The notes under the pieces are model-generated. The model ran no database searches. It had not been told where the DNA came from and saw only the letters and a list, made by a program, of their open reading frames with translations. A DNA stretch of 64,000 nucleotides from Lentzea waywayandensis. Its GTDB lineage: Bacteria; Actinomycetota; Actinomycetes; Mycobacteriales; Pseudonocardiaceae. Made by a program: the position numbers and the translations under genes. This document shows, piece by piece, positions 37,894 to 58,614 of this stretch; within the stretch, counting starts at the first letter, position 1; each line of letters starts with the position of its first letter. The DNA lies in NCBI RefSeq assembly GCF_900115955.1, contig NZ_FOYL01000002.1, positions 372,001 through 436,000 on the forward strand. The letters are read 5' to 3'.

Positions 37894-38586
37894 TCAGAGG
37901 CGGCGGACCCGGGCCAGCCACGCCGCGAGCTCGACGTGGCCGTGGGCGGGCAGGCCCCGCCGCACGGCCACCTCGGAGATCTGCCCGGTGATGAAGCCCT
38001 GGTAGTGGGCGGGTTCGATGCTCTCGATCTCCCAGCCCTCGGTGAAGGTCGCGCGGATGACGTCGTCGCTGATGCTGGAGCTCAAACCCGCCGCGGCGTC
38101 GGAGTGGGCGAGGATGTGCACCAGGGCGCCGGGGTTGGTGAGGGAGTGCAGGACGTCGGCGTAGTCCTTGGCGGCGCGGGGGTCGCCGTAGGCGCCGAAG
38201 CCGTGGAAGAGGGCCACGTCGACGATGGTGTCGAAGCCGCCCGCGAGGAACGGGTGTTGTTCGGGGTGCAGCATGTTGGCGACTTCGAACCGGGCCGTGG
38301 GCACGCCTCGTTCCGCGGCGGTGCGGCGGGCGTAGGCGATCGCGCTCGGCGAGAGGTCCACGCCGAGGGACTCGTAGCCGAGCTTGGTGAACAGGATGGT
38401 GTGCTCACCGGAGCCGCAGCCGGGTTCGAGCACCCGGCCGCGGATCAGGCCGGCGGCCTCCAGTTCGGCGATCGCGGGTTGCGGGCCGCCGATGAGCCAC
38501 GGCGCGGTTCCCTCGTCGTACATGAAGTTCCAGTACTCCGGATCCTCGAACCCGCGGGACTCGTCGGTCTTTCCGGTCTGTGTCAT
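37894..38586 (-). CDS. Class I SAM-dependent methyltransferase (bisindole cluster, left edge)
   Basis: A 230-residue methyltransferase. The SAM motif I is RGRVLEPGCGSGEHTILFTKLGYESLGVDLSPSAIAYARR, and the N-terminal YWNFMYDEGTAPWLIGGPQPAI resembles TPMT-like small-molecule methyltransferases. It lies 109 bp downstream of the FAD monooxygenase gene on the same strand, so both are probably one transcript and tailoring genes of the cluster. In cladoniamide/BE-54017-type clusters several methyltransferases act on oxygen and nitrogen atoms of the bisindole; which atom this one modifies cannot be told. It marks the likely left border of the cluster. Confidence 0.85.
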   Translation of the reverse strand: MTQTGKTDESRGFEDPEYWNFMYDEGTAPWLIGGPQPAIAELEAAGLIRGRVLEPGCGSGEHTILFTKLGYESLGVDLSPSAIAYARRTAAERGVPTARFEVANMLHPEQHPFLAGGFDTIVDVALFHGFGAYGDPRAAKDYADVLHSLTNPGALVHILAHSDAAAGLSSSISDDVIRATFTEGWEIESIEPAHYQGFITGQISEVAVRRGLPAHGHVELAAWLARVRRL

Positions 38587-38695
38587 GGGTTTCAGTGTGG
38601 TGAACCGCCTGGTCCGGGAACACAGCCGGGAAACGAACCCACTGGGTTGTGCGGCATGGAATCCCGGTCCGCGCGACCGTGACGCTGGATGGACC

Positions 38696-40309
38696 TCAGG
38701 CCGGTGTCCTCACGCGGGTCAGCACGGTGTCCAGGAACTCCGTGATGCTGTCCGGCTGGGGTTCGGCCACCGCCGCGATGTGGCCGTCCGGGCGGACGAG
38801 CACCAGCAGCGGGCCGTTCACCTGGTACACGCGGTAGGCGGCCTCCTCCTCCGGCGGGATCACGTGGGTGGTGATCGCGACGGTGTAGCGGTCGTCCAGG
38901 CTCGCGGCCAGGCGGTCGGTGTCGAGGGACTGCGCGGCGAACAGCAGGACGTGGTAGCCGGTGCCGTGGGTCAGGTCGAGCACGCTGCTCGCGCCGTCGC
39001 GGGTGGGCCTGATCTCGGCGTACGGCGCGCGGTCGCCCGGTCGCAGCGGGCCGGTGCCGCGGCCGACGGCGGGCGAGTCGCGGTAGGAGATCCACAGCTG
39101 GGAGAACATGTGGAAGAACATCCGGCGGATCGGGGCGAGCCGCGAGACCACGCCGACCACGCGGGTCGCGACGTGGGTGCGCATCCAGACCGCCACGGCG
39201 CTGTTCCCGGTCTCCAGCTTGAAGCCGAGGTCGGTGCGCTTGAGGACGGTGCGGGCGATCGGGCGGCGTTCTGACTCGTAGGTGTCGAGCAACCGCTCGG
39301 GTGCCTCGCCGTTCACGACCTGCGCGAGCTTCCACGCGAGGTTGATCGCGTCGCCGACGCCGAGGTTGAGGCCCTGGCCGCCCGCGGGGTTGTGGATGTG
39401 CGCCGCGTCGCCGGCGAGGAAGACGTTGCCCACGCGGAAGCGCGACGCGATCCTGCTGTGGAAGCGGAACATCGACGCCCAGACGATCTCCTTCAACCGG
39501 GCGTCCACTTTGAAGTAACTCTCGAACCACTGCTGGAGATCCGCGGGCGGCAAGGGCGCGTAGGCCTCGTGCGACGGGTTCTTCTGGGACGGTGCCTGCT
39601 CCAGTTCCCTGGGCACTACACCGAAAAGCCGGTAGCGGCCCGACGCGAGCGGCAGGATCCCGACGAAACCGCCACGGGTCAGGTTGAGCCGCATGCCCCG
39701 CACGCCCAGGTCGACGTCGAGGGTCACGTCCGCGAGCATGCCCGCCTGGTCGTAGGTCTCGCCGTCGAACGACTGGCCGACGAACCCGCGCACGACGCTG
39801 CTCGCCCCGTCCGCGCCGACCAGCCAGCGCGCGGTGATGGAAGCGCCCTCGGCCGTCGTCACGCCGACGAGGGCACCGGTGTCGGTCAGACCGGCGACGG
39901 CGGTGTTCCACTCGACCTCGACGTGGTGTTCCTTCAACGCCTCCACCAGCACCCGCTCGGTCTCGAACTGCTCGAGCGCGAGCGCGTAGGGGAACCGCGT
40001 CCGGTCGCTGGTGCCCTCCCCCGCGAGCGGCATGTCCCCCACGTGCCGCCCGGCCTCGTGGATGGCGACGTCGGTGATCGGCAGACCACGCGTGACCGCC
40101 GCCTCCGCGACGCCGAGCCGGTCGAAGTGCTCCAGCGTGCGGGCGTGCACGATCGCGGCGCGCGCCTGTTCTACGGGACCGGACTTGGAGTCGACGATCC
40201 GCACGCGCACGCCGTGCTGCGTGAGCATCAGCGCGGTGCACAGGCCGGTCGGCCCCGCCCCCACCACCAGGACGTCACAGTCGCGTTCGTCGCGCATCGG
40301 CTTCCTCAT
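38696..40309 (-). CDS. FAD-dependent aromatic monooxygenase (bisindole tailoring)
   Basis: A 537-residue class A flavin monooxygenase. The FAD motif is CDVLVVGAGPTGLCTALMLTQHGVRVRIVDS, the DG motif region is ITARWLVGADGASSVVRGFVGQ, and the second FAD motif is NVFLAGDAAHIHNPAGGQGLNLGVGDAINLAWKL. A C-terminal thioredoxin-like domain follows (about 400-537), as in phenol-hydroxylase-type enzymes. It is divergent from the methyltransferase-synthase operon. Indolotryptoline clusters need two flavin monooxygenases beyond RebC to oxidise and rearrange the indolocarbazole core, and this is a candidate for one of them. ATG 40297 is a possible later start. Confidence 0.88.
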   Translation of the reverse strand: MRKPMRDERDCDVLVVGAGPTGLCTALMLTQHGVRVRIVDSKSGPVEQARAAIVHARTLEHFDRLGVAEAAVTRGLPITDVAIHEAGRHVGDMPLAGEGTSDRTRFPYALALEQFETERVLVEALKEHHVEVEWNTAVAGLTDTGALVGVTTAEGASITARWLVGADGASSVVRGFVGQSFDGETYDQAGMLADVTLDVDLGVRGMRLNLTRGGFVGILPLASGRYRLFGVVPRELEQAPSQKNPSHEAYAPLPPADLQQWFESYFKVDARLKEIVWASMFRFHSRIASRFRVGNVFLAGDAAHIHNPAGGQGLNLGVGDAINLAWKLAQVVNGEAPERLLDTYESERRPIARTVLKRTDLGFKLETGNSAVAVWMRTHVATRVVGVVSRLAPIRRMFFHMFSQLWISYRDSPAVGRGTGPLRPGDRAPYAEIRPTRDGASSVLDLTHGTGYHVLLFAAQSLDTDRLAASLDDRYTVAITTHVIPPEEEAAYRVYQVNGPLLVLVRPDGHIAAVAEPQPDSITEFLDTVLTRVRTPA

Positions 40310-40499
40310 TCACGTCGGCGAGTCTGCGAACGAAGTATCGCCACGAGCCGTCTGCCACCACATCGCCCGTAGTGGAGCGTGATCGGCGGATCACCCTGCG
40401 CGAGCGCGCAGGTTCTCGGTGCCGTCCTTCTCCACGGCCACCGGACGCTCGATGGTGGAAGCGATCACATGGTGGACTGCCGGAAGCCGAGGGACCTCA

Positions 40500-41195
40500 A
40501 TGAGCGCCGCACCCGAAGCGTTTTTCGACGACTTGGCCGAACTGTACGAGCGCTTCACGGTCATCCGTGACGCCGCCACGAGTCCGGTGCGGTCCTGGCT
40601 CGTCGAGCAGCTGCCCGCCGGTACCCGCGCGCTGGACGTGGGGTGCGGCGGCGGCAACAACTGCGGCCTGCTCGCCGACCGGTACGACGACGTGGTCGGG
40701 GTCGACCTGTCCCAGAAGATGCTCGACATCGCGGCGACGAAACCCACGCGGGTGCCGGTGCGCTACGAGTGCCGCGACGCCGCCGACCTGACGCCCGAGC
40801 GCGACGGCCTGTTCGACCTCGTGATGTCGGTGAACGCGGTGTTCCACCTGGGACCCGCGGACGAGGTGCTGCCCGTGCTGCGCGCCCTCGTCGCCCCCGG
40901 CGGCCGGCTGGTGATCGTGGACGTGACCCAGCCCGACGGCGCGGCGGCCCCGGCCGAGCAGAGCGCCTACGCGTTCCAGACCGGCAAGATCATCTACGAC
41001 GTCTCCGGCGACGTCGATGCCGCGTGCGACTCGGTCCGGATGATGCTGCACCCGCGCTGGCTCGAGATGAGCGCCGCGGCGATGCCGCTCACCGACACGG
41101 AGTTCGGGCTCCAGTACGAGAAGGCGCTGCCCGGCGTGCGGATCACCAAGGACCTCATCCCCACGATGAGCGCGGCCGTCTGGGACAACGCATGA
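40500..41195 (+). CDS. Class I SAM-dependent methyltransferase (bisindole cluster)
   Basis: A 231-residue methyltransferase with SAM motif I ALDVGCGGGNNCGLLADRYDDVVGVDLSQKMLDIA, motif II in GLFDLVMSVNAVFHLG and motif III in VLRALVAPGGRLVIVDVTQ. GAGGGA lies 6 bases before ATG 40500; the upstream in-frame ATG (40419) has no ribosome site. Its stop overlaps the start of the RebD-type synthase (ATGA), so it is the first gene of the seven-gene plus-strand operon. It probably methylates an N or O of the bisindole product. Confidence 0.88.
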   Translation: MSAAPEAFFDDLAELYERFTVIRDAATSPVRSWLVEQLPAGTRALDVGCGGGNNCGLLADRYDDVVGVDLSQKMLDIAATKPTRVPVRYECRDAADLTPERDGLFDLVMSVNAVFHLGPADEVLPVLRALVAPGGRLVIVDVTQPDGAAAPAEQSAYAFQTGKIIYDVSGDVDAACDSVRMMLHPRWLEMSAAAMPLTDTEFGLQYEKALPGVRITKDLIPTMSAAVWDNA

Positions 41196-44100
41196 GCGTC
41201 TTCCACCTCCCCCGCCTGCACTTCGCGGGCACGGCGATCACCCGCCTGCCCACCGGGCCGCGGGCGGGCTGGCTCGACCTCGAGACCAACCAGGCCATCG
41301 ACGACCAGGGCGTGTTCGACACCGACCGTCCCGTGCAGGACTACTACGACTTCCTGGCGGACTCGAAGGGCCACAACTTCGAGGGCAACGGCCACTTCTG
41401 GGTCGACGCGAAGGTCGTCGGCACCGAGCTCACTCCCGGCGACGCAGGCACCGGCGACCTGGTGGTCGGGCGGCAGCTCGACTTCTGGGGCCACTTCTGC
41501 GACTACACCGCGGGCACGGCCAACCGCTCGCGCGTGTTCGACGTCGACCCCGCCTCGAACTGGACCACCACGCTGATGGTCGGCCAGCTCGCGCTCGGCA
41601 GGTCGGGCCGCTCCCACGACGTTCCCTACCTCGTGACCGGTGACGTGAACGGCCTGTGCCCGCCGCGCTGGAACCAGTTCCACACCGTCCTGCACCAGTT
41701 CGCCGTCGACAAGGCCGAGGGGTTGCACTGGCTCGACGGCGTCGCGGACTCCCCTGTGCTCACGCGACTGCGCGAGGTGGTCGAGAACGACGCGGACGGC
41801 CTGGTGGTCCAGTTCGCGCTCACCGACCAGAAGCACACCGGTGTGGGCCAGCCCGACGTCTGGCAGCTGCGGGGAACCGTCGCGGCCTGGCACCGCGACG
41901 AGCTGCGCAGCTATCCGGCCGGGCGGCTGCTCACGCCGCGCACCACGGGTTCCTCGCTGCACAACGTCTCCGTGCACGTCACCGACGAGCACGTCACCGC
42001 GAACCTCATCACCGCGCGACCGGACACCGATCTGGAAGTCCGCACGGCGTCAGGCACGCTGCTCGCCACTTTCGCATCCACATCGGACTCGTTCGGCGTG
42101 GTCGTGGCGTCGCGTGTGGACGGTGGCAGCGGCAACCCCGCCGAGGCGTTGGTGATCACCGACCGCGAGGGCACCGTGCTGTCGCGCGAGGAGGAGACCG
42201 TCGTCGAGTCCGACGAGGCCGCGCTGTTCCTGGAGCACGAGAACACCAGGACCGGTGAGGACCACGCCGTCGAGATCCCCGTCCGCTCGTACCTGCGCGG
42301 GGTGCCCGCGCGCGTCGACCGCGTCCACGTCCGGCAGTACGTGAACCCCGCCGCGTTGCCGCTGGCCGAAGACCGCGACACCGCTCAGCTCGTGGTGTTC
42401 CTGCCCACCGGACAGGCCGAGTACCAGGCCGAGCAGGTGCTCTCGACCGACGAGCACGGCCGCGGCACGATCACCCTCAAGGGCGTGCGGGGTGGAGCGA
42501 CGAGGGTCCTGCTCCGTCCGGAGTCCACGCCGCAACCGCGGGGTGACACGGCGGCCGAGCGCTACGACAACGACGACGACCAGGGCTACTGGTCGTCGGT
42601 CGGCTCGGTCGCGGTGCGGGTGCTGCCGAACCACTGGCACCTCGACGACCTGCCGGACGACGAGATCACCTTCCGCACGCTGTACCGGGAAGCCCTGGCG
42701 TACTACGAGCTTCAGTACTCGTTCATGCGGTCGGAGGTGCTGAGCCTCGCCGACGAGTTCAAGGTCGAGCCCTACGCCCGCCTGATCTGGCACGTGTCGG
42801 CGCCCGAGCACAAGGGCAAGACGTTCTACATGCCGCCGACGCGCGACATGAGCGCACCACAGATCCGGATGATGCTGCGCTACCTGCTCGCCGACGACGC
42901 CCAGCGGCAGACCCCACCTACTTTCGTTCCGCAGCAACGCAAGCTCGGCACCATCACCACGAAGGACCAGCTGTTGCACGCGCTGTACCAGGCGGCGGCG
43001 ATCGAGCTGGCCACCATGATCCAGTACCTGTACGCGGCCTACAGCGTCCCGACCCACGGCGCCGGCAAGAAGCTCGTCGAGCGCGGTGAGTGGACCGAGG
43101 AGCAGCTGCTCACGGCGTGCGGCGAAGGCACCGAGACGTGGAGCAACGGCATCCGCGGCAGCCTGATGTCCGTCGCTCGCGAGGAGATGATGCACTTCCT
43201 CGCCATCAACAACATCCTGATGGCGATGGGCAGGCCGTTCCACCTGCCCAAGCTCGACTTCGGCACGTTCAACAGCGACATCTGCGTACCGCTCGAGTTC
43301 TCGCTGGAGGCGCTGAACCTGGCCAGCGTGCAACGGTTCGTGGCGCTGGAACAACCGCACGACCTGATCGAGGAGATCGAGGGCAACGACTCCACGGTCC
43401 TGCGCACGGACGGCGAGCCGTACCAGTACGGGTCGCTGAGCGAGCTGTACGCGGCGATCCGCGAGGGCGTGCAGGCGGTGCCGGGCGTGTTCCTGGTGAA
43501 GAAGGGCCGCGGCGGCGGCGCGCACCACCTGTTCATGCGCGAGTCGGTCAACGCGGTGCACCCCGACTACCAGCTGGAAGTCGACGACGTGGCGAGCGCG
43601 GTGTTCGCCATCGACTTCGTCACCGAGCACGGCGAAGGTGGCCAGATCCCCTCGACGCTGCCGGAGGAGGAGTCGCACTTCGACACGTTCCTGCGCATCT
43701 CCGAGATGCTGATCGCGGAACGCGCCAAGGGTCCCAACGACCGCAGGATCCCGTGGAACCCCGCCTACCCGGTGATGCGCAACCCCACGCTGAAGCCGGG
43801 CAACGCGGCCATGGACCACGTGACGCACGAGCCGGCCCGGATCGCCATGAGGGCGTTCAACCGGTCGTACTTCATGGCGATGCAGCTGATGGTGCAGCAC
43901 TTCGGGTACAGCCCGGACAGGTCGTTGCGCCGCTCCCGGTTGATGAACTGGTCGCTGGACATCATGACCGGCGTGCTGCGGCCGCTCGGCGAGCTGATCG
44001 TCACGCTGCCGTCCGGACGGCCCGGCCGCACCGCGGGCCCGTCGTTCGAGCTCGACTCCACGCCGGAGTACATCTCCCGGCCCGACGTCGCGGTCGAGTG

Positions 44101-44233
44101 GATGGCCCGCGAGTTCGACGAGGTGGCGGATCTCGCCCGCAAGTGCGCCGGCTTCGGCCTCACCCCGACCGTCGGCGACCTGCTCGCCTTCATCGGTGAC
44201 TCGTTGCGCACCATGGACCTGAAAGACCTGTGA
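41192..44233 (+). CDS. rebD: Chromopyrrolic acid synthase, RebD/StaD/VioB type
   Basis: A 1013-residue enzyme that couples two molecules of indole-3-pyruvate imine (here probably chlorinated) to chromopyrrolic acid, the committed step of bisindole alkaloids. It starts with the family signature MSVFHLPRLHFAGTAITRLPTG and ATNQAIDDQGVF-like segments. From about residue 600 it holds the ferritin-like domain with helices IELATMIQYLYAAYS and REEMMHFLAINNILMAMG (Glu and His in metal/heme-type positions). The length equals that of the RebD group. It is coupled to the methyltransferase upstream (ATGA) and to the FAD monooxygenase downstream (TGATG). This gene defines the cluster. Confidence 0.95.
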   Translation: MSVFHLPRLHFAGTAITRLPTGPRAGWLDLETNQAIDDQGVFDTDRPVQDYYDFLADSKGHNFEGNGHFWVDAKVVGTELTPGDAGTGDLVVGRQLDFWGHFCDYTAGTANRSRVFDVDPASNWTTTLMVGQLALGRSGRSHDVPYLVTGDVNGLCPPRWNQFHTVLHQFAVDKAEGLHWLDGVADSPVLTRLREVVENDADGLVVQFALTDQKHTGVGQPDVWQLRGTVAAWHRDELRSYPAGRLLTPRTTGSSLHNVSVHVTDEHVTANLITARPDTDLEVRTASGTLLATFASTSDSFGVVVASRVDGGSGNPAEALVITDREGTVLSREEETVVESDEAALFLEHENTRTGEDHAVEIPVRSYLRGVPARVDRVHVRQYVNPAALPLAEDRDTAQLVVFLPTGQAEYQAEQVLSTDEHGRGTITLKGVRGGATRVLLRPESTPQPRGDTAAERYDNDDDQGYWSSVGSVAVRVLPNHWHLDDLPDDEITFRTLYREALAYYELQYSFMRSEVLSLADEFKVEPYARLIWHVSAPEHKGKTFYMPPTRDMSAPQIRMMLRYLLADDAQRQTPPTFVPQQRKLGTITTKDQLLHALYQAAAIELATMIQYLYAAYSVPTHGAGKKLVERGEWTEEQLLTACGEGTETWSNGIRGSLMSVAREEMMHFLAINNILMAMGRPFHLPKLDFGTFNSDICVPLEFSLEALNLASVQRFVALEQPHDLIEEIEGNDSTVLRTDGEPYQYGSLSELYAAIREGVQAVPGVFLVKKGRGGGAHHLFMRESVNAVHPDYQLEVDDVASAVFAIDFVTEHGEGGQIPSTLPEEESHFDTFLRISEMLIAERAKGPNDRRIPWNPAYPVMRNPTLKPGNAAMDHVTHEPARIAMRAFNRSYFMAMQLMVQHFGYSPDRSLRRSRLMNWSLDIMTGVLRPLGELIVTLPSGRPGRTAGPSFELDSTPEYISRPDVAVEWMAREFDEVADLARKCAGFGLTPTVGDLLAFIGDSLRTMDLKDL

Positions 44234-45471
44234 TGACCGAGAAGACGACAGTGTGCGTCGCGGGCGGCGGCCCGGCGGGAGCGGTGCTCGGACTCCTGCT
44301 GGCGCGGTCCGGGGTGGACGTCGTGGTGCTGGAGAAGCACTCCGACTTCCATCGCGACTTCCGCGGCGACACCGTGCACCCGGCGACCCTCCAGATCCTC
44401 GACGAGCTCGGCCTGATCGACCGGTTCCACGAACTTCCGCACCAGAAGGTCAGCACGATCGGCGTCGTGCAGGACGGCAAACGGATCGACATCGCCGACT
44501 TCCGCCGCTTGAAGGTCCGCTACCCGTACATGGCCTTCGTGCCGCAGTGGGACTTCCTCGACCTCATCACCGCGGAAGCCAAGAAGTACCCCGGATTCCG
44601 GTTGCTGATGAACACCGAGGCGCTGGGCGTGGTGCGGGAGAACGGACGGGTCGCCGGTCTGCGCGTGCGCGGACCCGAGGGCGAGCGGGAGATCCGTTCG
44701 ACGCTCGTGGTCGCGGCGGATGGACGACATTCGGTGATCAGGGAGGACTCGGGTTTCGTGCCGACGCTGATCGGCCGTTCGCTGGACGTCATCTTCTTCC
44801 GGATCTCCCGCAGGGACACCGATCCGGACGAGGGCATCTGCGTGCGGATCGGCAACGGCAAGATCTTTGGCGCCACCGACCGCCGCACCTACTGGCAGAT
44901 GTCGTACGAGACGTCCACCGGTGGCATGGAGAAGGTGCGGCGCGAGGGCCTCGACAAGTTCCGCGCGGACCTCGCCGAACTGGTGCCGTTCCTCGCCGAC
45001 CGGGCGCACGAGGTGTCCTCTTTGGACCAGTTGAGCCCGCTGGAGGCGCGGATCGACCGGCTGGAGCGGTGGCACGAGCCCGGTCTGCTGTTCATCGGTG
45101 ACGCCGCGCACGCGATGTCCCCGGTCGCGGGCTTCGGCGTGAACCTCGCGGTGCAGGACGCCGTCGCCACCTCGAACCTCCTCACCGCCGCACTCCTGCG
45201 GGCCCAGGACGGCGAGCCGTTCGACGACGACCTGCTCGCGTTGGTGCGCAAGCGCAGGAAACGCGCTGTCGCGCTGTCCCAGGGCCTTCAACGCGCCACG
45301 CAGAAGTTCGGCATCGACGAGGCGCTCGACGGTTCCGGCCAGCCGCCCGCGCCGAAGATCTTCGAGAAGCTCGGTGTCGCCCAGTGGCTGATGAGCCGCG
45401 TCATCGGGCTCGGCTTCCGGCCAGAACACGTTCGCACCCAGGAGAAAGCGCCGGAGGGAACCGTCCGATGA
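44233..45471 (+). CDS. FAD-dependent monooxygenase (bisindole tailoring)
   Basis: A 412-residue flavin monooxygenase, shorter than the RebC type because it lacks the C-terminal thioredoxin-like domain. Motifs are TVCVAGGGPAGAVLGLLLARSGVDVVVLEK, then FRGDTVHPATLQILDELGL, the DG motif region STLVVAADGRHSVIRED, and GLLFIGDAAHAMSPVAGFGVNLAVQDAV. It is placed between the bisindole synthase and the O-methyltransferase, overlapping both. Together with the 38.7-40.3 kb monooxygenase it supplies the two additional flavoproteins expected for indolotryptoline formation. GTG 44230 is an alternative start. Confidence 0.9.
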   Translation: MTEKTTVCVAGGGPAGAVLGLLLARSGVDVVVLEKHSDFHRDFRGDTVHPATLQILDELGLIDRFHELPHQKVSTIGVVQDGKRIDIADFRRLKVRYPYMAFVPQWDFLDLITAEAKKYPGFRLLMNTEALGVVRENGRVAGLRVRGPEGEREIRSTLVVAADGRHSVIREDSGFVPTLIGRSLDVIFFRISRRDTDPDEGICVRIGNGKIFGATDRRTYWQMSYETSTGGMEKVRREGLDKFRADLAELVPFLADRAHEVSSLDQLSPLEARIDRLERWHEPGLLFIGDAAHAMSPVAGFGVNLAVQDAVATSNLLTAALLRAQDGEPFDDDLLALVRKRRKRAVALSQGLQRATQKFGIDEALDGSGQPPAPKIFEKLGVAQWLMSRVIGLGFRPEHVRTQEKAPEGTVR

Positions 45472-49971: not shown

Positions 49972-50096
49972 GCGATTGGGGCTTGACCTTGAGCCTCTGG
50001 CGGGATGCTTGACGGCCGGAAAAGGCCGGGCTGAAAAGCGCCCGGCCGTGCCCGTGAGGGGAGCATCCCGCCCACTCAAGGTAAAGCCCCAATCGC
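49972..50096. repeat. 125-bp imperfect palindrome between convergent genes
   Basis: Outer arms 49972-49993 and 50075-50096 match with one mismatch over 22 bp. Inside them 49999-50009 pairs with 50062-50072 (11 bp), and further inside GGCCGG/CCGGCC segments can form a small hairpin. The whole can fold as one long cruciform. It lies between a plus-strand and a minus-strand gene and may act as terminator. Its size and nested form also fit a miniature or REP-like repeated element. Confidence 0.75.
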
Positions 50097-50165
50097 CATG
50101 AGCGGGGTGCACCGCCACCCAGGCGGCACAGGTTCACACGGCTCGCTTCGCATCGCCACACCAGG

Positions 50166-50533: not shown

Positions 50534-51328
50534 TCAGTGCGATCCGAGCAGCCACTCCGTCGTCACCCGGATCGCCGGGGCCTGCCAGTGCGCGTCGACG
50601 GGCGGGGCGATCTCGACCAGGCGGCTCGGGCAGGTCAGCGCCTCCACCGCGCTGCGCGAGGAGGACGCCGGTACGTCCGTCGGGCCGGCGCCGTGCACGA
50701 CGAGGGTGGGCGCGGTGATCACCGGCAGCACGCCGCGCGGCTGGAGCCAGAAGACCTCGTTCAGCATCGCGCGGCCGACCACGAAGGTGTCCGAGACGCG
50801 CAGGTGTCCGTCGGCGAGCAGTGCGCGACCGGCCTCCGTGCCGAGGAAACCCCCTGACCACGCGGGGTTCGCGTCGGCGAAGTGCTCCTGGTAGTCGATC
50901 AGCGGGTTGAACAGCACGACCTTCGCCACCTCGTCGGCCCTGCGGGCGGCGTATCCGGCTGCGACGCCGCCGGTCAGGCCGGTGGCGAGGAGCATCGCCG
51001 GGCCGGGGCCCTCGTGGTCGCGCAGGTGGGTCAGCGAGGCGCTGATGACGTTGAGGAGGCCGGACAGGCTCAGTTCCTCCTGCGTGCCCTCGCTGTCGCC
51101 GTGTCCCGGCAGGTCGACGCGCAGGCTGGCGACGCCGAGGCCGGCTAGTTCCGCGGCCAGGCGGACGTAGAACCCGCCCTGGTCCCGGTCGGCGCCCTCC
51201 CCGTGCAACAGCAGTGCGGTGCAACGGGGTTCACCAGCGGGCAGGACCGCTGTCGCGGCCAGCCGCAGGCCGTCGTGTCCACGCACGGTGGTCGTTCGCT
51301 GGACGACTTCAGCGGTGCGCACCGGCAT
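50534..51328 (-). CDS. Alpha/beta hydrolase
   Basis: A 264-residue soluble hydrolase. The oxyanion/first-strand region is CTALLLHGEGADRD, followed by GVASLRVDLPGHGDSEGTQEELS. The nucleophile region AMLLATGLTGGVAAGYAAR has Thr where the usual GxSxG Ser is expected (A-T-G-L-T-G-G). An acid and a late His are in APTLVVHGAGPTDVPASSS and PVDAHWQAPAIRV. It may therefore have an atypical or lost nucleophile. ATG 51328 follows a GGAGGCC site on the minus strand; the much longer open frame upstream is only the reverse of the oxidase gene. It sits inside the bisindole cluster, facing the other way, and is not part of the textbook rebeccamycin set. Confidence 0.82.
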   Translation of the reverse strand: MPVRTAEVVQRTTTVRGHDGLRLAATAVLPAGEPRCTALLLHGEGADRDQGGFYVRLAAELAGLGVASLRVDLPGHGDSEGTQEELSLSGLLNVISASLTHLRDHEGPGPAMLLATGLTGGVAAGYAARRADEVAKVVLFNPLIDYQEHFADANPAWSGGFLGTEAGRALLADGHLRVSDTFVVGRAMLNEVFWLQPRGVLPVITAPTLVVHGAGPTDVPASSSRSAVEALTCPSRLVEIAPPVDAHWQAPAIRVTTEWLLGSH

Positions 51329-51520: not shown

Positions 51521-53026
51521 ATGAGTCCGGTGCACACGAACGTCCTGTCCGGCGGACAACACTGGCCGCAGCGGCCGAAGCGGGTCACGGTGCTTGGCGC
51601 GGGGGTCGCCGGGCTGGTCGCGGCGCACGAGCTGGAACGCCTGGGCCACAGCGTCCAGGTGCTCGAGGCACGGCTGGAGGTCGGCGGGCGCGTCCGCACG
51701 CACGCGTTCGTCGGCAGGGGGCCGCTCGCCGAGCTCGGCGCCATGCGCATCCCCGCCTCGCACCACCGGACCATGCAGTGGATCGACCTGCTGGGGCTCA
51801 GTGATCGGGTCCGGCAGTTCCGCACGCTGTTCTCCGACGACGCCAGCTACCTGGAGACCCATGCCGGGCACCTGCGGGTACGCGAGGCGACTTCGGTGCT
51901 GGTCGAGGAGTTCCGCCGCGGCCTGCCGGCCGGCGAGTACCGCGAGGAGTCCGTGCTCGCGGCGACGTGGCTGACCGCGAGCGTCAACGCCGTCGCGCCC
52001 GGCGCGTTCCGCACGAACCTGCACAGCGACCTGAACCTGGAGCTGCTGGACCTGCTCGACGGCATCGACGTGCGGCCGTACTTCGTGAGCACCGGCGGCA
52101 TCGAGCGCCTCGACGTCAACCGGTTCTTCGCCGGCAACCCGAGGTTCGCCGCGCGCAGCCGCCTCGCGCACTTCTTCGACGACATCACCGTCGAGACGTC
52201 GTCGGCGCTGTTCCGGCTCGAGGGCGGGATGGACCAGATCACCGTCAGGCTGGCCGAGAGCCTGCGCGGACCGGTGCACCGCGGCCGCCAGGTGGTCGGC
52301 CTGCACGTCCGTCCGGACGGCGTGGTCGTGGAGACGAGGCGCGGCCTGGACGTCGTCGCGAGCCACTGCGACTACGTGCTGTGCACCGTGCCGTTCTCGG
52401 TCGTGCGGCGGATGAACCTGAGCGGCCTGGACGACGACAAGCTCGCGACCGTGCACGACATGCAGTACTGGCCCGCGACGAAGATCGCGGTGCACTGCAA
52501 GGACGCGTTCTGGGAGAGCGACGGCATCAGCGGCGGCGGCTCGTTCACCGGCGGCCTGGTGCGCCAGACCTACTACCCGCCGGTCGAGAGCGATCCCCGG
52601 CTCGGCGCGGCGTTGCTCGCCAGCTACACGATCGGCCCGGACGCCGACGCGCTGGCGCGGATCTCGCCGGAGCAGCGGGAACGCGTCGTGCTCGACGAGC
52701 TCGGCCGGATCCACCCCGAGTTGAAGAAGCCGGGAATGGTGCTCGACGTGGTGACCCAGGCTTGGGGCGAGGACTTCTCCAGCATGGGGGCCGCGTCGGT
52801 GCGGTGGAGCAAGGACGTCGCGACGTCCGAGGAGGAACGGGCGCTGGCGGCCAAACCGCAGGGCACGTTGTTCTTCGCGGGCGAGCACTGCTCGACCTAC
52901 CCGGCCTGGATCGAGGGCGCGATCGAGTCCGGTCTCGCCGCGGCGCAGGAGATCCACGCCGGCACCACGGTCGAACGCCCGCTCGTGGCGTCCGGCTACC
53001 GCCGCATGCGTGGTGGCGCGGCATGA
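51521..53026 (+). CDS. rebO: L-tryptophan oxidase, flavin amine oxidase family (RebO type)
   Basis: A 501-residue FAD enzyme that would oxidise (chloro)tryptophan to the indole-3-pyruvate imine used by the RebD-type synthase. The FAD motif RVTVLGAGVAGLVAAHELERLGHSVQVLEARLEVGGRVRTH lies at about 20-60. The substrate-side MRIPASHHRTMQWIDLLGL and the closing FAD segment LFFAGEHCSTYPAWIEGAIESGLAAAQEI near the C-terminus agree with L-amino acid oxidases of the RebO/StaO group. ATG 51521 is chosen as nearest the FAD motif; GTG/ATG codons upstream (51434) extend into non-family sequence. It overlaps the next gene by four bases (ATGA). Confidence 0.93.
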   Translation: MSPVHTNVLSGGQHWPQRPKRVTVLGAGVAGLVAAHELERLGHSVQVLEARLEVGGRVRTHAFVGRGPLAELGAMRIPASHHRTMQWIDLLGLSDRVRQFRTLFSDDASYLETHAGHLRVREATSVLVEEFRRGLPAGEYREESVLAATWLTASVNAVAPGAFRTNLHSDLNLELLDLLDGIDVRPYFVSTGGIERLDVNRFFAGNPRFAARSRLAHFFDDITVETSSALFRLEGGMDQITVRLAESLRGPVHRGRQVVGLHVRPDGVVVETRRGLDVVASHCDYVLCTVPFSVVRRMNLSGLDDDKLATVHDMQYWPATKIAVHCKDAFWESDGISGGGSFTGGLVRQTYYPPVESDPRLGAALLASYTIGPDADALARISPEQRERVVLDELGRIHPELKKPGMVLDVVTQAWGEDFSSMGAASVRWSKDVATSEEERALAAKPQGTLFFAGEHCSTYPAWIEGAIESGLAAAQEIHAGTTVERPLVASGYRRMRGGAA

Positions 53027-54636
53027 ACGCGGCCAGGAACTCAGGGGAGAACGACGTGCTCGACGCCGAAGTGATCATCGTCGGCGGCGGGCCGACCGGC
53101 ATGGCCACCGCGCTGGAACTGCGTTCGCGAGGCGTGGCCTTCGTCCTGGTCGAGGCCGGCGACGGCACGGTCGGTCACCCCAAGGTGTCCAGCATCGGGC
53201 CGCGGTCCATGGAGTTCTTCCGCCGCTGGGGCGTCGCGGACGACATCCGCCACTCGGGCTGGCCCGACGACCACCCGCTGGACTGCGTGTGGACGACCCG
53301 CATCGGCGGGCACGAGCTGTTCCGGCTGCCCCGCCACACGATGGGCACCCGCCCGGACTTCCGGCACACTCCGGAACCGGACGCGATCTGCCCGCAGCAC
53401 TGGCTCGGTCCCCTGCTGCGCAAGGCGTTGGGCGTGCATCCGGACGGGCCGGTGCGGATGAGCACGCGGCTGGAGTCGTTCACGCAGGACGGCACCGGCG
53501 TGACCGCGGTGCTCAGCGACGGCACCGAGGTGCGGGCGCGCTACCTGATCGCCTGCGACGGCGCCAGCTCGCCGATCCGCAAGCACCTCGGCATCGCCGC
53601 GCCCGCCGTGCACGACACGCTGGTCTTCCGCAACGTCCTGTTCCACGCGCCCGAACTGCGTGAGCGGCTCGGTGACAAGGTCGCGAACTTCTTCTACCTG
53701 ATGATCTCCTCGGCGTTGCGCTTCCCGGTCCGCGCCCTGGACGGCCGCGGGCTGTACCGGATGACCGTCGGCCTGCAGGGGTCGCCGGAGTCGACGCAGG
53801 ACGCCGAAACGCTGGTGCGCAAGGCGATCGCGTTCGACACGCCGGTCGAGGTGCTGTCCGACAACGAGTGGCACCTCGTGCACCGGGTCGCCGAGAACTT
53901 CCGCTCCGGCCGGGTGTTCCTCGTCGGGGACTCGGCGCACACGCTGTCGCCGTCGGGCGGGTTCGGCATGAACACCGGCATCTGCGGTGCCGCCGACCTC
54001 GGCTGGAAGCTCACCGCCGAGCTGCGCGGGTGGGCAGGGCCCGACCTGCTCGACAGCTACACGCTGGAACGTCAGCCCGTCGCGTTCGAGGGGCTGGAGG
54101 AGGCGAACCGCAACCTGGAACGGGCGATGCGCCGCGAGGTGCCGCCGTTCCTGAACGACGACACCCCGCAGGGCGCGGCGATGCGGGCGAAGATCAGCGA
54201 GGGGTTGCAACGCGGCGGGGTGGCCCGCGAGTTCGACGCGCCGGAGATCCACCTCGGGTTCACCTACGCCGGGTCCGGGCTCGTCATCGACGACCCGACC
54301 GCGGAGAACCTCGAGGACCGCAGGCCGAACACCCGGCCGGGATCCCGCGCGCCGCACGCGTGGGTGAAGGACGGCATGTCCACATTGGACCTGTTCGGGG
54401 ACGGGTTCGTGCTGGCGCACTTCGAGGACTCCGCACGGCTCGCGGCGTTCGCGGAGGCGTTCGACTCACGCGGGATCCCGTTCCGCGCGGAGAGGCTGGA
54501 CGCGCCGGAGATCGCGACCGCCTACGAGCGGCCGTTCGTCCTGGTGCGGCCGGACGGGCACGTGGCGTGGCGGGGAACGGACCTGCCCGCGGACGCCGGG
54601 ACGATCGCGGACACCGTGCGCGGAGGTGCGCGATGA
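53023..54636 (+). CDS. rebC: FAD-dependent monooxygenase, RebC/StaC type
   Basis: A 537-residue flavoprotein that acts with the P450 to turn chromopyrrolic acid into an indolocarbazole (arcyriaflavin-type) core. Motifs are AEVIIVGGGPTGMATALELRSRGVAFVLVEA, then HPKVSSIGPRSMEFFRRWG, DG motif YLIACDGASSPIRKHLG, and GRVFLVGDSAHTLSPSGGFGMNTGICGAADLGWKL. A C-terminal thioredoxin-like domain follows. Placed between RebO- and RebP-type genes, coupled by ATGA on both sides, which is the classic O-C-P gene order. RebC and StaC differ in the oxidation state of the product; this cannot be decided by eye. Confidence 0.92.
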   Translation: MNAARNSGENDVLDAEVIIVGGGPTGMATALELRSRGVAFVLVEAGDGTVGHPKVSSIGPRSMEFFRRWGVADDIRHSGWPDDHPLDCVWTTRIGGHELFRLPRHTMGTRPDFRHTPEPDAICPQHWLGPLLRKALGVHPDGPVRMSTRLESFTQDGTGVTAVLSDGTEVRARYLIACDGASSPIRKHLGIAAPAVHDTLVFRNVLFHAPELRERLGDKVANFFYLMISSALRFPVRALDGRGLYRMTVGLQGSPESTQDAETLVRKAIAFDTPVEVLSDNEWHLVHRVAENFRSGRVFLVGDSAHTLSPSGGFGMNTGICGAADLGWKLTAELRGWAGPDLLDSYTLERQPVAFEGLEEANRNLERAMRREVPPFLNDDTPQGAAMRAKISEGLQRGGVAREFDAPEIHLGFTYAGSGLVIDDPTAENLEDRRPNTRPGSRAPHAWVKDGMSTLDLFGDGFVLAHFEDSARLAAFAEAFDSRGIPFRAERLDAPEIATAYERPFVLVRPDGHVAWRGTDLPADAGTIADTVRGGAR

Positions 54637-55811
54637 AGCCGTTCTCCCTGAAGGACTGGCCGGACGAGGACCTGCACGACCCCTTCCCGGTGTTCGCCCG
54701 CTACCTCGCGGCCGGGCCCGTGCACTTCGCGGACGGCACCTGTTACGTGTTCGGTCACGACGCCGCGGTCGAGGTGCTGACCGGCGCCTCGTTCGGCCGC
54801 CGGTCGCCGTCGGGCGGGGGCAGCCCGGTGTCGGTGCCCTCGGCGCTGCGCACGCTCGTGGAGAACTGGCTGGTCTTCCTCGACCCACCGCGGCACACCG
54901 AGCTGCGATCGGTGCTGAACAAGGAGTTCTCGCCGTCGGTGGTGACGAACCTCCGGCCGCGGATCACCGAGATCGCCCGGGACCTGCTGACCGGCCTGCC
55001 CCGGACGTTCGACCTCGTGGAGAGGTTCTCCGCACCCCTGCCGATCCTGGTCATCTCCGAACTGCTCGGCGTGCCGCGCGAGGACTCGGAGTGGTTGCGG
55101 GACAGGGCGGTCGACCTTCAGGAGGCGAGCAGCGTCCGGGCGGCGGCGAACCCCGACGCGCACGCCGTCGCCGACCGGGCCGCGCGAGAGCTTCGGGACT
55201 ACTTCCTCGCGCTGATGCGGACTCTGCGGTTCGAGCCCGGTGACGACCTGGTGTCGTTGATGGTCTCCGCCCAGACTCGCGGCGAACCGTTGTCGTCGGA
55301 CGAGATCGTCGGCACCTGCGTGCACCTGATGACCGCCGGGCACGAGACGACGACGAACGTGCTGAGCAAGTCGGTCCTGGCGCTGGCGTCCCGGCCGGAG
55401 GCGCTCGCGGAACTGCGGCGCGGCGTGACCCCGACCGCCGTCGAGGAGCTCGTGCGGTTCGACCCGCCCGTGCAGGCCGTCGGGCGGTGGGCGCACCAGG
55501 ACGCCGTCGTCGCGGGCGTGGAGATCCCGGCCGGCACCAGGGTGATGGTGATGCTCGGTGCGGCGAACCGTGACCCTGCCCGGTTCGCCGCACCGGATTC
55601 ACTGGACCTGAGCCGTGCCGGTGGGCGCAACACCGGCTTCGGTCTCGGCATCCACTACTGCCTCGGCGCCGCGCTGGCCCGTGCCGAGCTGGAGATCGGG
55701 CTGGGCCTGCTCCTCGCGGCGTTGGGCGACTACACAGTGGACAGTGTGAAGTTCCCGCACGACATCGTGTTCCACGGGCCGCACAGCGTCGTCGTGACCC
55801 GGTCGGGATGA
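54633..55811 (+). CDS. rebP: Cytochrome P450, RebP/StaP type
   Basis: A 392-residue P450 that would catalyse oxidative aryl-aryl coupling of chromopyrrolic acid. The I-helix motif is HLMTAGHETTTNVLSKS, and the heme ligand is Cys343 in FGLGIHYCLGAALARAELEIGLGLL. The ATG overlaps the stop of the RebC-type gene, with GGAGGTGCGCG upstream. Electron transfer partners are not in the cluster; the ferredoxin pair at 14.4-15.8 kb is one possible donor in the same genome. The gene ends only four bases before the convergent LAL regulator. Confidence 0.93.
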   Translation: MKPFSLKDWPDEDLHDPFPVFARYLAAGPVHFADGTCYVFGHDAAVEVLTGASFGRRSPSGGGSPVSVPSALRTLVENWLVFLDPPRHTELRSVLNKEFSPSVVTNLRPRITEIARDLLTGLPRTFDLVERFSAPLPILVISELLGVPREDSEWLRDRAVDLQEASSVRAAANPDAHAVADRAARELRDYFLALMRTLRFEPGDDLVSLMVSAQTRGEPLSSDEIVGTCVHLMTAGHETTTNVLSKSVLALASRPEALAELRRGVTPTAVEELVRFDPPVQAVGRWAHQDAVVAGVEIPAGTRVMVMLGAANRDPARFAAPDSLDLSRAGGRNTGFGLGIHYCLGAALARAELEIGLGLLLAALGDYTVDSVKFPHDIVFHGPHSVVVTRSG

Positions 55812-55815
55812 CGGG

Positions 55816-58614
55816 TCACGGCGCGATGCGGGCCAGGTCGACGCGGGACCGGATGTCCAGCTTGCGGTAGATCTGCCGGAGGTGGAACCCGACGGTGTGC
55901 GGGGAGACGAACAGCTCGGTGGCCACCTGCCGGTTGGTCAGGCCGGCCGCGACGAGCGCGGCGACCTTCGCCTCGGTGGTGGTGAGGCTCTCCCAGCCCG
56001 AGTCGGGACGGGCCTCGTAGTTCCAGTGCCGGCGCCGCACGCCGAGCCGCCGGAGCTTGCGTCGCACCCGTGCCGCGTCCCACGCCGCGCCGAACTCGTC
56101 GTAGCGCTCCATCGCGCGGTTGAGCTCCAGCACGGCGCGGTCGCGGTCCTCGTCGCGCAGCAGCGAACCCAGGTCCTCGACCAACGACGCCACCGCCCAC
56201 ACGTCGGCGCCGTAGAGGTCCTCCAGGCCGGCGAGGCCCGCGACGTCGCCTTCGAGCAGCGCCCGGCCGTGCCGTGCGGCCGCGACGAACGCGGAGTGCT
56301 CCGGGTTCGCCCCGGCGATCTCCTCGACGGTGACGACGATCAGCTTGGCGTGGTCGGTCTCCCCCGCGCTCAGCGCCGTGCGCACCGCCCAGGACGTCGA
56401 CGACGGGTCCTCCAGGACCAGCCGCCGGCGTGAGGCCGGGTCCTCGATCACCTCGCGCAGTTCCTCCATCGCCTCCCGCGCGCCACGGCCGGCGGAGGTG
56501 AGCAGCGCGGACAGCAGACAGCGCAACAGGAACGGCTGACCGCCGGGCGCGCGACTCTCCAGGCCGCGCAGGTGCCGGGTCGCCGCCGCCAGGTCGCCCC
56601 GCCGCAGCGCCGCCATCACCAGCACGGCCCGCAGCTGCGGTTCGTACATCGGCGTGCCGGCCCGTTCGGACGCCTGAAGGCCCGCCGTCGCGTCGGCCTC
56701 CGCGGCGGCCAGGTCACCCTTGACCAGGAGGACCTCTGCCCGCAGGGCCAGCGGGAGCGAGCTGAGCACGCTCATGTTCTGCTCGTCGATCGTGCGGCGC
56801 ACCTGCTCGACCGTCGCCAGGGCGTCGTCGAGCCTGCGCACCCTGGTGAGCATCCAGGCCCGCATCCACAGCGGGTCCGCCTGGCAGACCTCGGCCGGGT
56901 CCGGGCGCAGCGCGATGGCCTCGTCGGTGGTGGCCAGCGCCTCGGTCAGCTCACCCTCGCGCCACCGCACCCGCGCGCGGACGGTGAGCGCGGCCGCCCG
57001 GACCGCGTCGCTGTGGGCGCCGGGATCGGCGAGCACCTGGTCCGCCACGTCGACGACCTCACGTCGTTCCTCGCCGGAGAAGGTGTTGAGGAGCAACAGA
57101 TCCGGCCACGACTCGTGGTCCTCCCGCCGGTCGGCGACCACGTCCTTCGCCGCCGCCTCGTCGCCGCGCAGCATCAACGCCGTCGCGAGCCAGTTGCGCA
57201 GCGAGGCCGACGACTCCCCCGCGCACCTGCGCAGCTGTTCGGTGGCGAGGTCGACGGCGGCGCCGAGGTCGCCCAGGCGCACCAGCGCGGCGACGGCGGT
57301 GGTGGCCAGCACCACCCGGTCGGCGCTGTCCGGGGAGGCGATCTCGAGGCCGCGGGTGGCGAGCGCGGCGGCGGTCTGCGGCGCGGTGGGGAGCAGTCCG
57401 AGGACCGCCTCCCGGATGATCCGGATGGCACCTTCGTCGCCCGGTTTCGCGCAGTGCACCAGATGCACGGCGGCGGCCTCGGCACGGCGCTGCTCGACCA
57501 GCATCGTTGCCGCCTGCCGGTGCAGCATCGTGCGCAGCAACGCGGGCACGGTGCCGAGCACGACCAGCCAGACCGGTTCGCGGTGGAACGTGAACTCGTC
57601 CCCGTCGCTGTCGATCACGCCGGCGCGGATGGCCTCCTGCAGGGGCCCGAGCAGCTGCGACGTCCGCTCGCCCAGCATCTCGGCGAGGTCCTGCGGCGGG
57701 AACCTGTCGCCGAGCACAGCCGCGACCTGGAGCACCTCCCGCGACCGCAGCGACAACCGCCCCAGCCGGGAGCGGACCATGCGCACGAACGCCTCCGGCA
57801 GCCGCGCGCCGGGTTCGGCCTCCACCGCCGACGGCATACCTGCCGTCACGGCCTCGTGCGCCAGCTCGACGACCCCGCCGGCGAGGGTGAGGCACTGCTC
57901 CTGCCGCAGGGCCAGCACGAGGTCCACAACGGACCGCGGTTCACCCCCGACGCTCTCGCACAGCGCGATGACACCCGGATCGGGCGTGGCCTTGAGCACG
58001 TCCTCGACCAGGCTGACGACCGCGGCGCCGGACAGCGGCTCCAGCGGGCCGAGTCTCTTCGCCCGGTGCTGCCGGACCAGCGAGTGCAGCAGCTGGCCGT
58101 TCGGCGCCTCGGCGTGCGCCGAGTCCAGCGCGAACATCCACAGCACCGGCGCCGCGCCGAGCTTCGCCATCACGACGCCGAACGCGTGCAGCAGAGCCAG
58201 CTCCGCCCACTGCACGTCGTCCACGACGACCAGCACCGGCTCATGCCGCAGGTGCCCGGCGAGTTGTGCCTCGCACCGTGCCGCCAGCACGGCGATGCGG
58301 TCGTCCTCGCTCCGCCCGTTGCGCGCGGCGACCAGCGCGACGGGCCGGCCGGCACCGGCGCGCGGCGAGACGCCGTCCACGACGGCGAACCCGTGCCGTG
58401 CCGCCAGCGCCGCGGCCCGCTCCAGCAACCAGGTCTTCCCGGAACCCGACTCGGACTGGAGCACGACGACGTGCGCCTGGCCGCCCGCGCCGATCGCGGA
58501 GATCAGGTCCTCGACCGCGCGCAGTTCGGTCTCACGGCCGTGCGGTGAGGTGACCGCCGCGACGCTGGGCACGAGCGAGGGATCGAAACCCTTTTCCAGA
58601 TTCCCCTGGGACAC
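55816..58614 (-). CDS. LAL-type LuxR-family regulator (RebR-like cluster activator)
   Basis: A 932-residue large ATP-binding LuxR regulator. Residues about 25-250 form an AAA/STAND ATPase with Walker A QSESGSGKTWLLER (54-67) and Walker B VLVVVDDVQWAELALL. A long helical, TPR-like middle follows. The last 60 residues are a LuxR helix-turn-helix (LTTTEAKVAALVAAGLTNRQVATELFVSPHTVGFHLRQIYRKLDIRSR). Size and location match RebR-type activators of bisindole clusters. GTG 58614 has GGAGAG at a good distance; ATG 58674 is a possible upstream start. It probably activates the cluster and marks its right border. Confidence 0.9.
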   Translation of the reverse strand: MSQGNLEKGFDPSLVPSVAAVTSPHGRETELRAVEDLISAIGAGGQAHVVVLQSESGSGKTWLLERAAALAARHGFAVVDGVSPRAGAGRPVALVAARNGRSEDDRIAVLAARCEAQLAGHLRHEPVLVVVDDVQWAELALLHAFGVVMAKLGAAPVLWMFALDSAHAEAPNGQLLHSLVRQHRAKRLGPLEPLSGAAVVSLVEDVLKATPDPGVIALCESVGGEPRSVVDLVLALRQEQCLTLAGGVVELAHEAVTAGMPSAVEAEPGARLPEAFVRMVRSRLGRLSLRSREVLQVAAVLGDRFPPQDLAEMLGERTSQLLGPLQEAIRAGVIDSDGDEFTFHREPVWLVVLGTVPALLRTMLHRQAATMLVEQRRAEAAAVHLVHCAKPGDEGAIRIIREAVLGLLPTAPQTAAALATRGLEIASPDSADRVVLATTAVAALVRLGDLGAAVDLATEQLRRCAGESSASLRNWLATALMLRGDEAAAKDVVADRREDHESWPDLLLLNTFSGEERREVVDVADQVLADPGAHSDAVRAAALTVRARVRWREGELTEALATTDEAIALRPDPAEVCQADPLWMRAWMLTRVRRLDDALATVEQVRRTIDEQNMSVLSSLPLALRAEVLLVKGDLAAAEADATAGLQASERAGTPMYEPQLRAVLVMAALRRGDLAAATRHLRGLESRAPGGQPFLLRCLLSALLTSAGRGAREAMEELREVIEDPASRRRLVLEDPSSTSWAVRTALSAGETDHAKLIVVTVEEIAGANPEHSAFVAAARHGRALLEGDVAGLAGLEDLYGADVWAVASLVEDLGSLLRDEDRDRAVLELNRAMERYDEFGAAWDAARVRRKLRRLGVRRRHWNYEARPDSGWESLTTTEAKVAALVAAGLTNRQVATELFVSPHTVGFHLRQIYRKLDIRSRVDLARIAP

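What the first reader, a model, noticed from the sequence alone, without database searches (positions are those of the whole stretch)
37894..58614. Bisindole cluster with halogenase and two extra flavin monooxygenases but no glycosyltransferase
Seen: RebO-, RebD-, RebC- and RebP-type genes, tryptophan halogenase, flavin reductase, antiporter and LAL regulator, plus two more FAD monooxygenases and three methyltransferases; no glycosyltransferase or sugar gene. Known: rebeccamycin clusters carry an N-glycosyltransferase, while BE-54017/cladoniamide clusters replace it with two extra monooxygenases and methyltransferases that make indolotryptolines. Inferred: the product is a chlorinated, methylated, non-glycosylated bisindole, probably an indolotryptoline.
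Basis: partly seen in the sequence, partly recalled or inferred. Interest (0 to 1): 0.85.

Follow-up and report, generated by a model that had tools for sequence, protein, structure and literature searches.

The report
BE-54017-type bisindole cluster in Lentzea
A soil actinobacterium carries a complete copy of a known gene cluster for a rearranged, chlorinated tryptophan-dimer drug lead, and its one gene of unknown role encodes a hydrolase look-alike that has lost its catalytic centre in every such cluster compared here.

Summary
Window 37894-58671 holds 14 intact genes, M2-X1-M1-D-X2-M3-H-T-F-Y-O-C-P-R, in the order of the published BE-54017 (abe) cluster. The genome matches Lentzea waywayandensis DSM 44232 by exact size, one of 21 genomes in a published survey reporting BE-54017-like clusters in Lentzea. 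So it is a new member of a known kind, predicted to make a trimethylated, mainly monochlorinated BE-54017-like product; dichlorinated masses are not expected.

In all 10 clusters compared its catalytic Ser is Gly, its Asp is Pro (9) or Ala (1), and the His is gone. Of 34 relatives examined outside such clusters 31 keep the triad. Y is one clade under purifying selection: a conserved pseudo-hydrolase, contradicting the published idea that it hydrolyses the succinimide. Also: AbeH, from environmental DNA, is 515/515 identical to the L. californiensis protein, and a 25-bp dyad between X1 and M1 is present in 10 of 10 clusters.

The parts
37894..38586 (-). M2, N-methyltransferase (AbeM2-type, indole N); absent from the cladoniamide cluster
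   Evidence: Methyltransf_25; 90% identical to the L. californiensis orthologue; role from Ryan 2011
38696..40309 (-). X1, FAD monooxygenase (AbeX1/ClaX1-type), predicted to epoxidise/dihydroxylate the indolocarbazole
   Evidence: FAD_binding_3 E 6e-77; tree; role from Ryan 2011
40392..40416 (.). 25-bp imperfect dyad in the divergent X1|M1 promoter region, candidate operator
   Evidence: present in 10 of 10 clusters; a matrix from the five non-Lentzea sites scores the window site 32.7 against a maximum of 17.5 in 10 mononucleotide shuffles. Binding by R is inferred
40500..41195 (+). M1, N-methyltransferase (AbeM1-type, succinimide N)
   Evidence: Methyltransf_11; 231 aa as AbeM1
41192..44233 (+). 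D, chromopyrrolic acid synthase (RebD/AbeD)
   Evidence: TIGR04492 VioB-like 583 bits, below that model's own cut-off; only RebD match in the genome at E 1e-20 or better
44233..45471 (+). X2, FAD monooxygenase (AbeX2/ClaX2-type), predicted to trigger the ring flip
   Evidence: FAD_binding_3; tree
45468..46478 (+). M3, O-methyltransferase (AbeM3-type)
   Evidence: Methyltransf_2 E 3e-44; 336 aa as AbeM3
46501..48048 (+). H, tryptophan 5-halogenase (AbeH orthologue)
   Evidence: Trp_halogenase E 1e-139; 483/515 identical to AbeH, PDB 8fov
48048..49289 (+). T, Na+/H+ antiporter, putative exporter
   Evidence: Na_H_Exchanger
49286..49768 (+). F, flavin reductase partner of H
   Evidence: Flavin_Reduct E 2.5e-35; 160 aa as AbeF
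49862..50489 (.). dispersed palindromic element (core 49972-50097) followed by a 55-bp tandem array (50169-50489), inserted between F and Y
   Evidence: not part of the pathway
50534..51328 (-). Y, alpha/beta-hydrolase-fold protein (AbeY/ClaY) without a catalytic triad: conserved pseudo-hydrolase
   Evidence: 264 aa as AbeY; Gly117 for Ser, Pro for Asp, His loop missing; AlphaFold mean pLDDT 85.8; feruloyl-esterase-like fold
51521..53026 (+). O, L-tryptophan oxidase (RebO/AbeO)
   Evidence: Amino_oxidase E 6e-57
53023..54636 (+). C, flavin monooxygenase (RebC/AbeC)
   Evidence: PDB 2r0c RebC E 1.5e-200; like 2r0c at 6 of the 10 sites where it differs from 4eip
54633..55811 (+). P, cytochrome P450 (RebP/AbeP)
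   Evidence: p450 E 1e-28; 392 aa as AbeP
55816..58671 (-). R, LAL-type LuxR regulator (AbeR)
   Evidence: GerE + AAA_16; 951 aa

Best explanation
This is a complete BE-54017-type (abe) indolotryptoline biosynthetic cluster in Lentzea, most likely L. waywayandensis DSM 44232. Proposed route: H with F makes 5-chlorotryptophan. O oxidises it to the imine and D dimerises it to a chromopyrrolic acid. P and C close the indolopyrrolocarbazole. X1 epoxidises it (diol after opening), X2 oxidises the diol and triggers the cleavage and re-closure that flips one indole. M1 (imide N), M2 (indole N) and M3 (O) methylate. T exports and R activates, perhaps through the conserved dyad between X1 and M1. Y is not a classical serine hydrolase: it is a conserved triad-less pseudo-hydrolase with an accessory role, most simply holding or shielding a late intermediate. 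Shown here: gene content, order, orthology, loss of the triad and purifying selection. Taken from published work on abe/cla: the enzyme roles. Inferred: that this strain expresses the cluster and makes BE-54017 or a close analogue, the R-dyad link, and what Y does.
For: Order identical to abe, with H, F, Y, M1, M3 and P of exactly the published Abe lengths. H 483/515 to AbeH, which makes 5-Cl-Trp. L. californiensis H is 515/515 AbeH, and the window's 14 proteins are 79-94% identical to that cluster's. X1/X2 trees. C is like RebC at 6 of 10 sites, among them the F and R sites, fitting an imide. For Y: triad absent in 10 of 10 clusters, retained in 31 of 34 relatives examined; catalytic Ser position fixed by 7z2u against its S114A variant 7z2v; Gly117 lies at the strand-helix elbow of the model; dN/dS 0.195-0.207; one clade 100/100; AbeY is not essential for BE-54017 in the heterologous host (Ryan 2011).
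Against: No product was measured. The abe proteins other than AbeH were not available, so identity to abe rests on AbeH, on published sizes and order, and on L. californiensis as a proxy. X2 clade support is weak (64/72). C is like 4eip (recalled to be an engineered StaC-like RebC) at 4 of 10 sites. Y could still catalyse something without a triad; abeY mutants made new unidentified small metabolites; 3 of 34 relatives lost Ser and the His loop independently, so such loss is not unique to this pathway.
Confidence: 0.9

Rival explanations
1. The cluster makes cladoniamides (no indole N-methyl) rather than BE-54017.
For: All core, X1, X2, M1 and M3 genes are shared with cla.
Against: M2 is present and intact; gene order is abe (B-A-C), not cla (A-B-C); identity is 79-94% to the L. 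californiensis cluster against 48-76% to S. uncialis.
Confidence: 0.05
2. The cluster makes a glycosylated or plain indolocarbazole using a glycosyltransferase elsewhere in the genome.
For: 13 PF06722 matches lie elsewhere in the genome; the ODCP core is shared with rebeccamycin.
Against: None of those is in the window; X1, X2 and M3 have no place in such a pathway; the genome's only RebD match is this one.
Confidence: 0.03
3. Y is an active hydrolase with an unusual nucleophile (for example Thr119) that opens the succinimide ring, as Ryan 2011 suggested and a 2023 review (PMC10138632) repeats as fact.
For: T119 is invariant in 10 of 10 clusters and absent from the first 14 relatives; the fold is intact; minor ring-opened products exist.
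Against: Asp and His are lost too; the residue aligned with the proven catalytic Ser is G117, not T119; AbeY is not essential for BE-54017 or its derivatives in the heterologous host; the title of a later paper ascribes bisindole diversity to nonenzymatic routes (title seen in a reference list).
Confidence: 0.08
4. Y is a decaying, dispensable gene.
For: Triad lost; abeY is not essential for production in the heterologous host.
Against: dN/dS about 0.20, within the range of the other genes; 49 positions invariant through cluster Y and the first 14 relatives; kept in 10 of 10 clusters across Lentzea, Kutzneria, Streptomyces and Nocardia.
Confidence: 0.12

Closest known systems
BE-54017 (abe) cluster, environmental DNA, GenBank JF439215
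   Same: 14 genes in the same order; AbeH 483/515 identical; H, F, Y, M1, M3, P of equal length
   Different: About 6-21% protein divergence, measured against the L. californiensis cluster; 765 bp with a repeat element between F and Y (70 bp in L. californiensis)
Cladoniamide (cla) cluster, Streptomyces uncialis DCA2648 (L006)
   Same: 13 orthologous genes (48-76% identical)
   Different: Fragment order A-B-C instead of B-A-C; no M2
Borregomycin (bor) cluster
   Same: Chlorinated indolotryptoline product; tryptophan halogenase with flavin reductase
   Different: The tryptophan-6-halogenase 6ul2 (recalled to be BorH) scores 372.7 bits to window H against 1143.2 for AbeH; gene content of bor was not compared here
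Rebeccamycin (reb) cluster
   Same: RebO/D/C/P, halogenase, reductase, antiporter, LAL regulator (table of Ryan 2011)
   Different: No glycosyltransferase found here; X1, X2, Y, M2 and M3 extra
Feruloyl/cinnamoyl esterases (7z2u, 3pf8) for Y
   Same: Fold, TM about 0.76-0.79 over the query
   Different: Y lacks Ser, Asp and His of the triad

Membership tests
BE-54017 (abe) type indolotryptoline cluster | Gene order M2 X1 M1 D X2 M3 H T F Y O C P R | tested here: met
   against the order given in Ryan 2011
BE-54017 (abe) type indolotryptoline cluster | AbeH-type tryptophan-5-halogenase | tested here: met
   483/515 to AbeH; regiochemistry itself is taken from AbeH
BE-54017 (abe) type indolotryptoline cluster | X1 and X2 group with AbeX1/ClaX1 and AbeX2/ClaX2 | tested here: met
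   with ClaX1/ClaX2 (L006) and the L. californiensis proteins in place of AbeX1/AbeX2; X2 support only 64/72
BE-54017 (abe) type indolotryptoline cluster | Product BE-54017 (trimethylated, monochloro) | not testable with these tools
   needs culture and LC-MS/NMR
Cladoniamide (cla) type | Fragment order A-B-C and no M2 | tested here: not met
   order is B-A-C and M2 is present
Rebeccamycin type | N-glycosyltransferase (RebG) in the cluster | tested here: not met
   none found in the cluster
Staurosporine type | StaC-type residues in the RebC homologue | tested here: inconclusive
   like RebC 2r0c at 6 and like 4eip at 4 of the 10 sites where they differ (that 4eip is an engineered StaC-like RebC is recalled)
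Serine alpha/beta hydrolases (for Y) | Ser-Asp-His triad | tested here: not met
   Gly 10/10; Pro 9, Ala 1; no His in 10/10 cluster Y proteins
Serine alpha/beta hydrolases (for Y) | alpha/beta hydrolase fold | tested here: met

The most novel reading that the evidence does not exclude
AbeY/ClaY is a pseudo-hydrolase recruited once from a family of active esterase-like enzymes, its triad removed, so that its pocket binds a late indolocarbazole diol or ring-opened intermediate and steers or protects the ring-flip rearrangement: non-hydrolytic help for a step until now put down to X2 and spontaneous chemistry.
Probability: 0.25. Interest if true: 0.65.

Novelty: new member of a known kind. Interest (0 to 1): 0.4.

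Why it matters
It gives a culturable species, and four more Lentzea genomes, for a cluster that was characterised from environmental DNA, and points to Lentzea as the source of that clone. It also narrows the one open gene of the pathway: Y lacks the residues of a classical hydrolase yet is kept under selection, so its role can be tested directly, and a role that a review now states as fact is put in doubt. The conserved X1|M1 dyad is a concrete target for studying how the cluster is switched on.

Tried and rejected
Rejected: glycosylated product; cladoniamide type; plasmid-borne copies (70 plasmid records match X1 at E 1e-50 or better, all below 60% identity); Rfam families at gathering score and tRNAs in the window (none). 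A first reading of Y with Leu at the nucleophile position (my note) was dropped when one search showed that the catalytic Ser aligns with G117. The statement that all relatives keep the triad, true for the first 14, failed when 20 more were added: 3 have Arg and no His loop. The Y|O promoter has at best a weak version of the dyad (score 9.7, below the maxima of all 10 shuffles, 10.9-17.5). The orientation counts around the repeat element come from a crude coding score that called the window's own copy wrongly (-- although F is + and Y is -), so I draw nothing from them.

Led nowhere: search for RebR/StaR binding sites (nothing on binding sites of these regulators among the 8 rows listed); pdb_via library (not installed).
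Full report
Observation. The window is G000:C24:372001-436000 of a 10,153,412-base genome. That size equals, to the base, the entry for Lentzea waywayandensis DSM 44232 in a table of PMC9120177 (passages seen). The genus is confirmed because G008, a same-genus genome, carries its X1 at the contig position found in Lentzea cavernae. Between 37894 and 58671 lie 14 open genes without internal stops. Its start was set at 51328 because an ATG is aligned there in all 10 clusters and gives 264 aa, the published AbeY length.

Identity. Gene order is that of the abe cluster as described by Ryan 2011 (PMC3158105; parts 1-3 of 6 read): M2, fragment B (X1 M1 D X2 M3), fragment A (H T F Y O C P), fragment C (R). 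The cladoniamide cluster has order A-B-C and lacks M2. Halogenase H is 483 of 515 identical to AbeH from PDB 8fov; AbeH makes 5-chlorotryptophan (PMC11840605, passages). ClaH of S. uncialis aligns to AbeH at 380 of 506. C is closest to RebC; at the ten sites where 2r0c and 4eip differ it is like RebC at six and like 4eip at four, on balance in line with an imide product. No PF06722 glycosyltransferase lies in the window.

Relatives. The one genome-contig scan, with X2, gave 9 loci; eight hold this kind of cluster, and the ninth (Nonomuraea, 48%) does not. With the window and G011 this makes the 10 clusters used below. Of 24 genomes of the genus 5 carry X1 at 90% or more, own included. Of 390 in the family 11 match X1 at E 1e-100 or better, six of them at 76% or more; of the five weaker ones only G287 has a RebD match. 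Of 394 in the class 2 match, own included; the other, G417, has no RebD match. In X1 and X2 trees the ten clusters are one side of a branch (83/90 and 64/72), the window nested among Lentzea. Of 22 window flank proteins searched against the stretches fetched around nine other clusters (about 5-25 kb each side), the few matches have 29-64% identity and none marks a shared flank. So, as far as these stretches show, the cluster sits in different places in different Lentzea genomes.

Source of the environmental clone. AbeH, which PMC11840605 ascribes to an uncultured soil actinomycete, is 515 of 515 identical to the halogenase of L. californiensis DSM 43393 (L002). The other abe proteins could not be compared. 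PMC9120177 already reports Lentzea clusters 71-100% similar to the BE-54017 cluster of uncultured bacterium AB1650, so the assignment may be implicit in print; the passages I saw do not name the species.

Gene Y. Ryan 2011 leaves the role open, suggests hydrolysis of the succinimide, and reports from Chang and Brady that abeY is not essential for BE-54017 in the heterologous host, though abeY mutants show new unidentified small metabolites. A 2023 review (PMC10138632, one passage seen) states the hydrolysis by ClaY as fact. Y has a feruloyl-esterase-like fold (model mean pLDDT 85.8, pTM 0.87; first PDB match 7z2v). 7z2v is the S114A variant of 7z2u, and the position where they differ aligns, in an intact relative (L136), with the first Ser of AASFSGG. 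In all 10 cluster Y proteins that residue is Gly (G117, between strand 111-116 and helix 117-129 of the model). The Asp is Pro in 9 and Ala in 1. None has the His: the column is a gap in 10 of 10 in one alignment and in 9 of 10, with Asp in S. uncialis, in the other; the loop that carries it is missing or, in S. uncialis, rebuilt.

Relatives of Y. 79 of 386 family genomes match the Y profile at E 1e-25 or better, six of them the cluster genomes. I examined 34 non-cluster rows of that list, all of 226 bits or more: 14 supplied as loci and 20 that I picked from the table; rows below that were not examined. Ser is kept in 31, Asp in 34, His in 31. The three exceptions, all of genus code g24, have Arg for Ser and lack the loop. 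A single clade of cluster Y plus these three is rejected (p-AU 0.00013), so the triad was lost at least twice. Cluster Y is one clade, 100/100. Pairwise dN/dS of Y among Lentzea (own Nei-Gojobori script) is 0.195-0.207 against 0.05-0.35 for the other 13 genes; R was compared with two genomes only, the displaced R of G026 and G011 being left out. Ten frames next to intact relatives, from 7 of the 14 loci, were scanned: in 4 of the 7 loci a neighbour has an XRE-type helix-turn-helix, and none looks biosynthetic except perhaps a methyltransferase annotated as PCMT. Y is therefore a selected pseudo-hydrolase; what it does is inference.

Regulation. The divergent X1|M1 region holds a 25-bp imperfect dyad, picked out by eye from the alignment and present in 10 of 10 clusters. 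A matrix from the five non-Lentzea sites scores the window site 32.7; the next window hit is 16.0 and the maximum of 10 mononucleotide shuffles is 17.5. The Y|O region scores only 9.7. That R binds the dyad is a guess.

Print check. Searches: indolotryptoline (20 of 22 listed), cladoniamide/BE-54017/borregomycin (20 of 37), cladoniamide with O-methylation terms, RebR/StaR, Nocardia with bisindole terms, N. seriolae (none), Lentzea with BE-54017 (one paper), AbeY/ClaY ('clay' swamps it, 6 rows listed), AbeX1/AbeX2/ClaX1/AbeM2, hydrolase-triad terms. In what these listed, only Ryan 2011 and the review PMC10138632 speak of ClaY/AbeY, and neither passage mentions a missing triad. Chang and Brady 2011 and 2013 and Du 2014 were not held and may say more.

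Verdict. A well-supported new member of a known cluster type, of moderate interest. The part worth a specialist's time is the triad-less Y.

Noticed in passing
L034:15361-19956 (+) and L035:8388-14138 (-): Nocardia crassostreae and N. seriolae carry indolotryptoline-type clusters in which no M2, M3 or T was found in the stretches fetched, but a nonribosomal peptide synthetase stands right after D (C-A-T-C and C-A-MT-T-C). N. crassostreae also has a fatty-acid-synthase-like operon between P and X1. The N. seriolae contig ends 1.3 kb past X2, so genes there may be missed. Suggests peptide- or acyl-decorated indolotryptolines; not found in the paper searches.
   Followed up: partly
L058 (G287:C5:1555000-1574999): A diverged cluster with X1 51%, X2 56%, D 52%, C 57%, O 46% and P 41% to the window and no Y match in this 20-kb stretch: possibly another indolotryptoline-like product.
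   Followed up: partly
8 of 38 predicted pairs show changes on both sides in 18 copies. Looks like a nonautonomous repeat spread in Lentzea.
   Followed up: partly
L002, halogenase H: AbeH from environmental DNA is 515/515 identical to the Lentzea californiensis DSM 43393 protein.
   Followed up: partly
G026 (L003) and G011: In these two Lentzea genomes no R orthologue follows P within the stretches fetched. The best R-like match lies 13.5 kb (G026, cut by the stretch end) or about 14 kb (G011) beyond M2; in G011 it appears as three tblastn pieces in different frames.
   Followed up: no
L149, L165, L167 (genus code g24): A second lineage of Y-family proteins with Arg for the catalytic Ser and the His loop missing but Asp kept; their neighbourhoods were not looked at.
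   Followed up: partly
window 15826-27392: Island of plant-polysaccharide genes: pectate lyase, GH43 arabinofuranosidases, ricin-type lectin domains, beta-helix proteins.
   Followed up: no
window 32734-36249 and 62203-63485: An NB-ARC/CHAT protein of 1171 aa left of the cluster and weak EspC/WXG100-like matches, just below Pfam's cut-offs, right of it.
   Followed up: no
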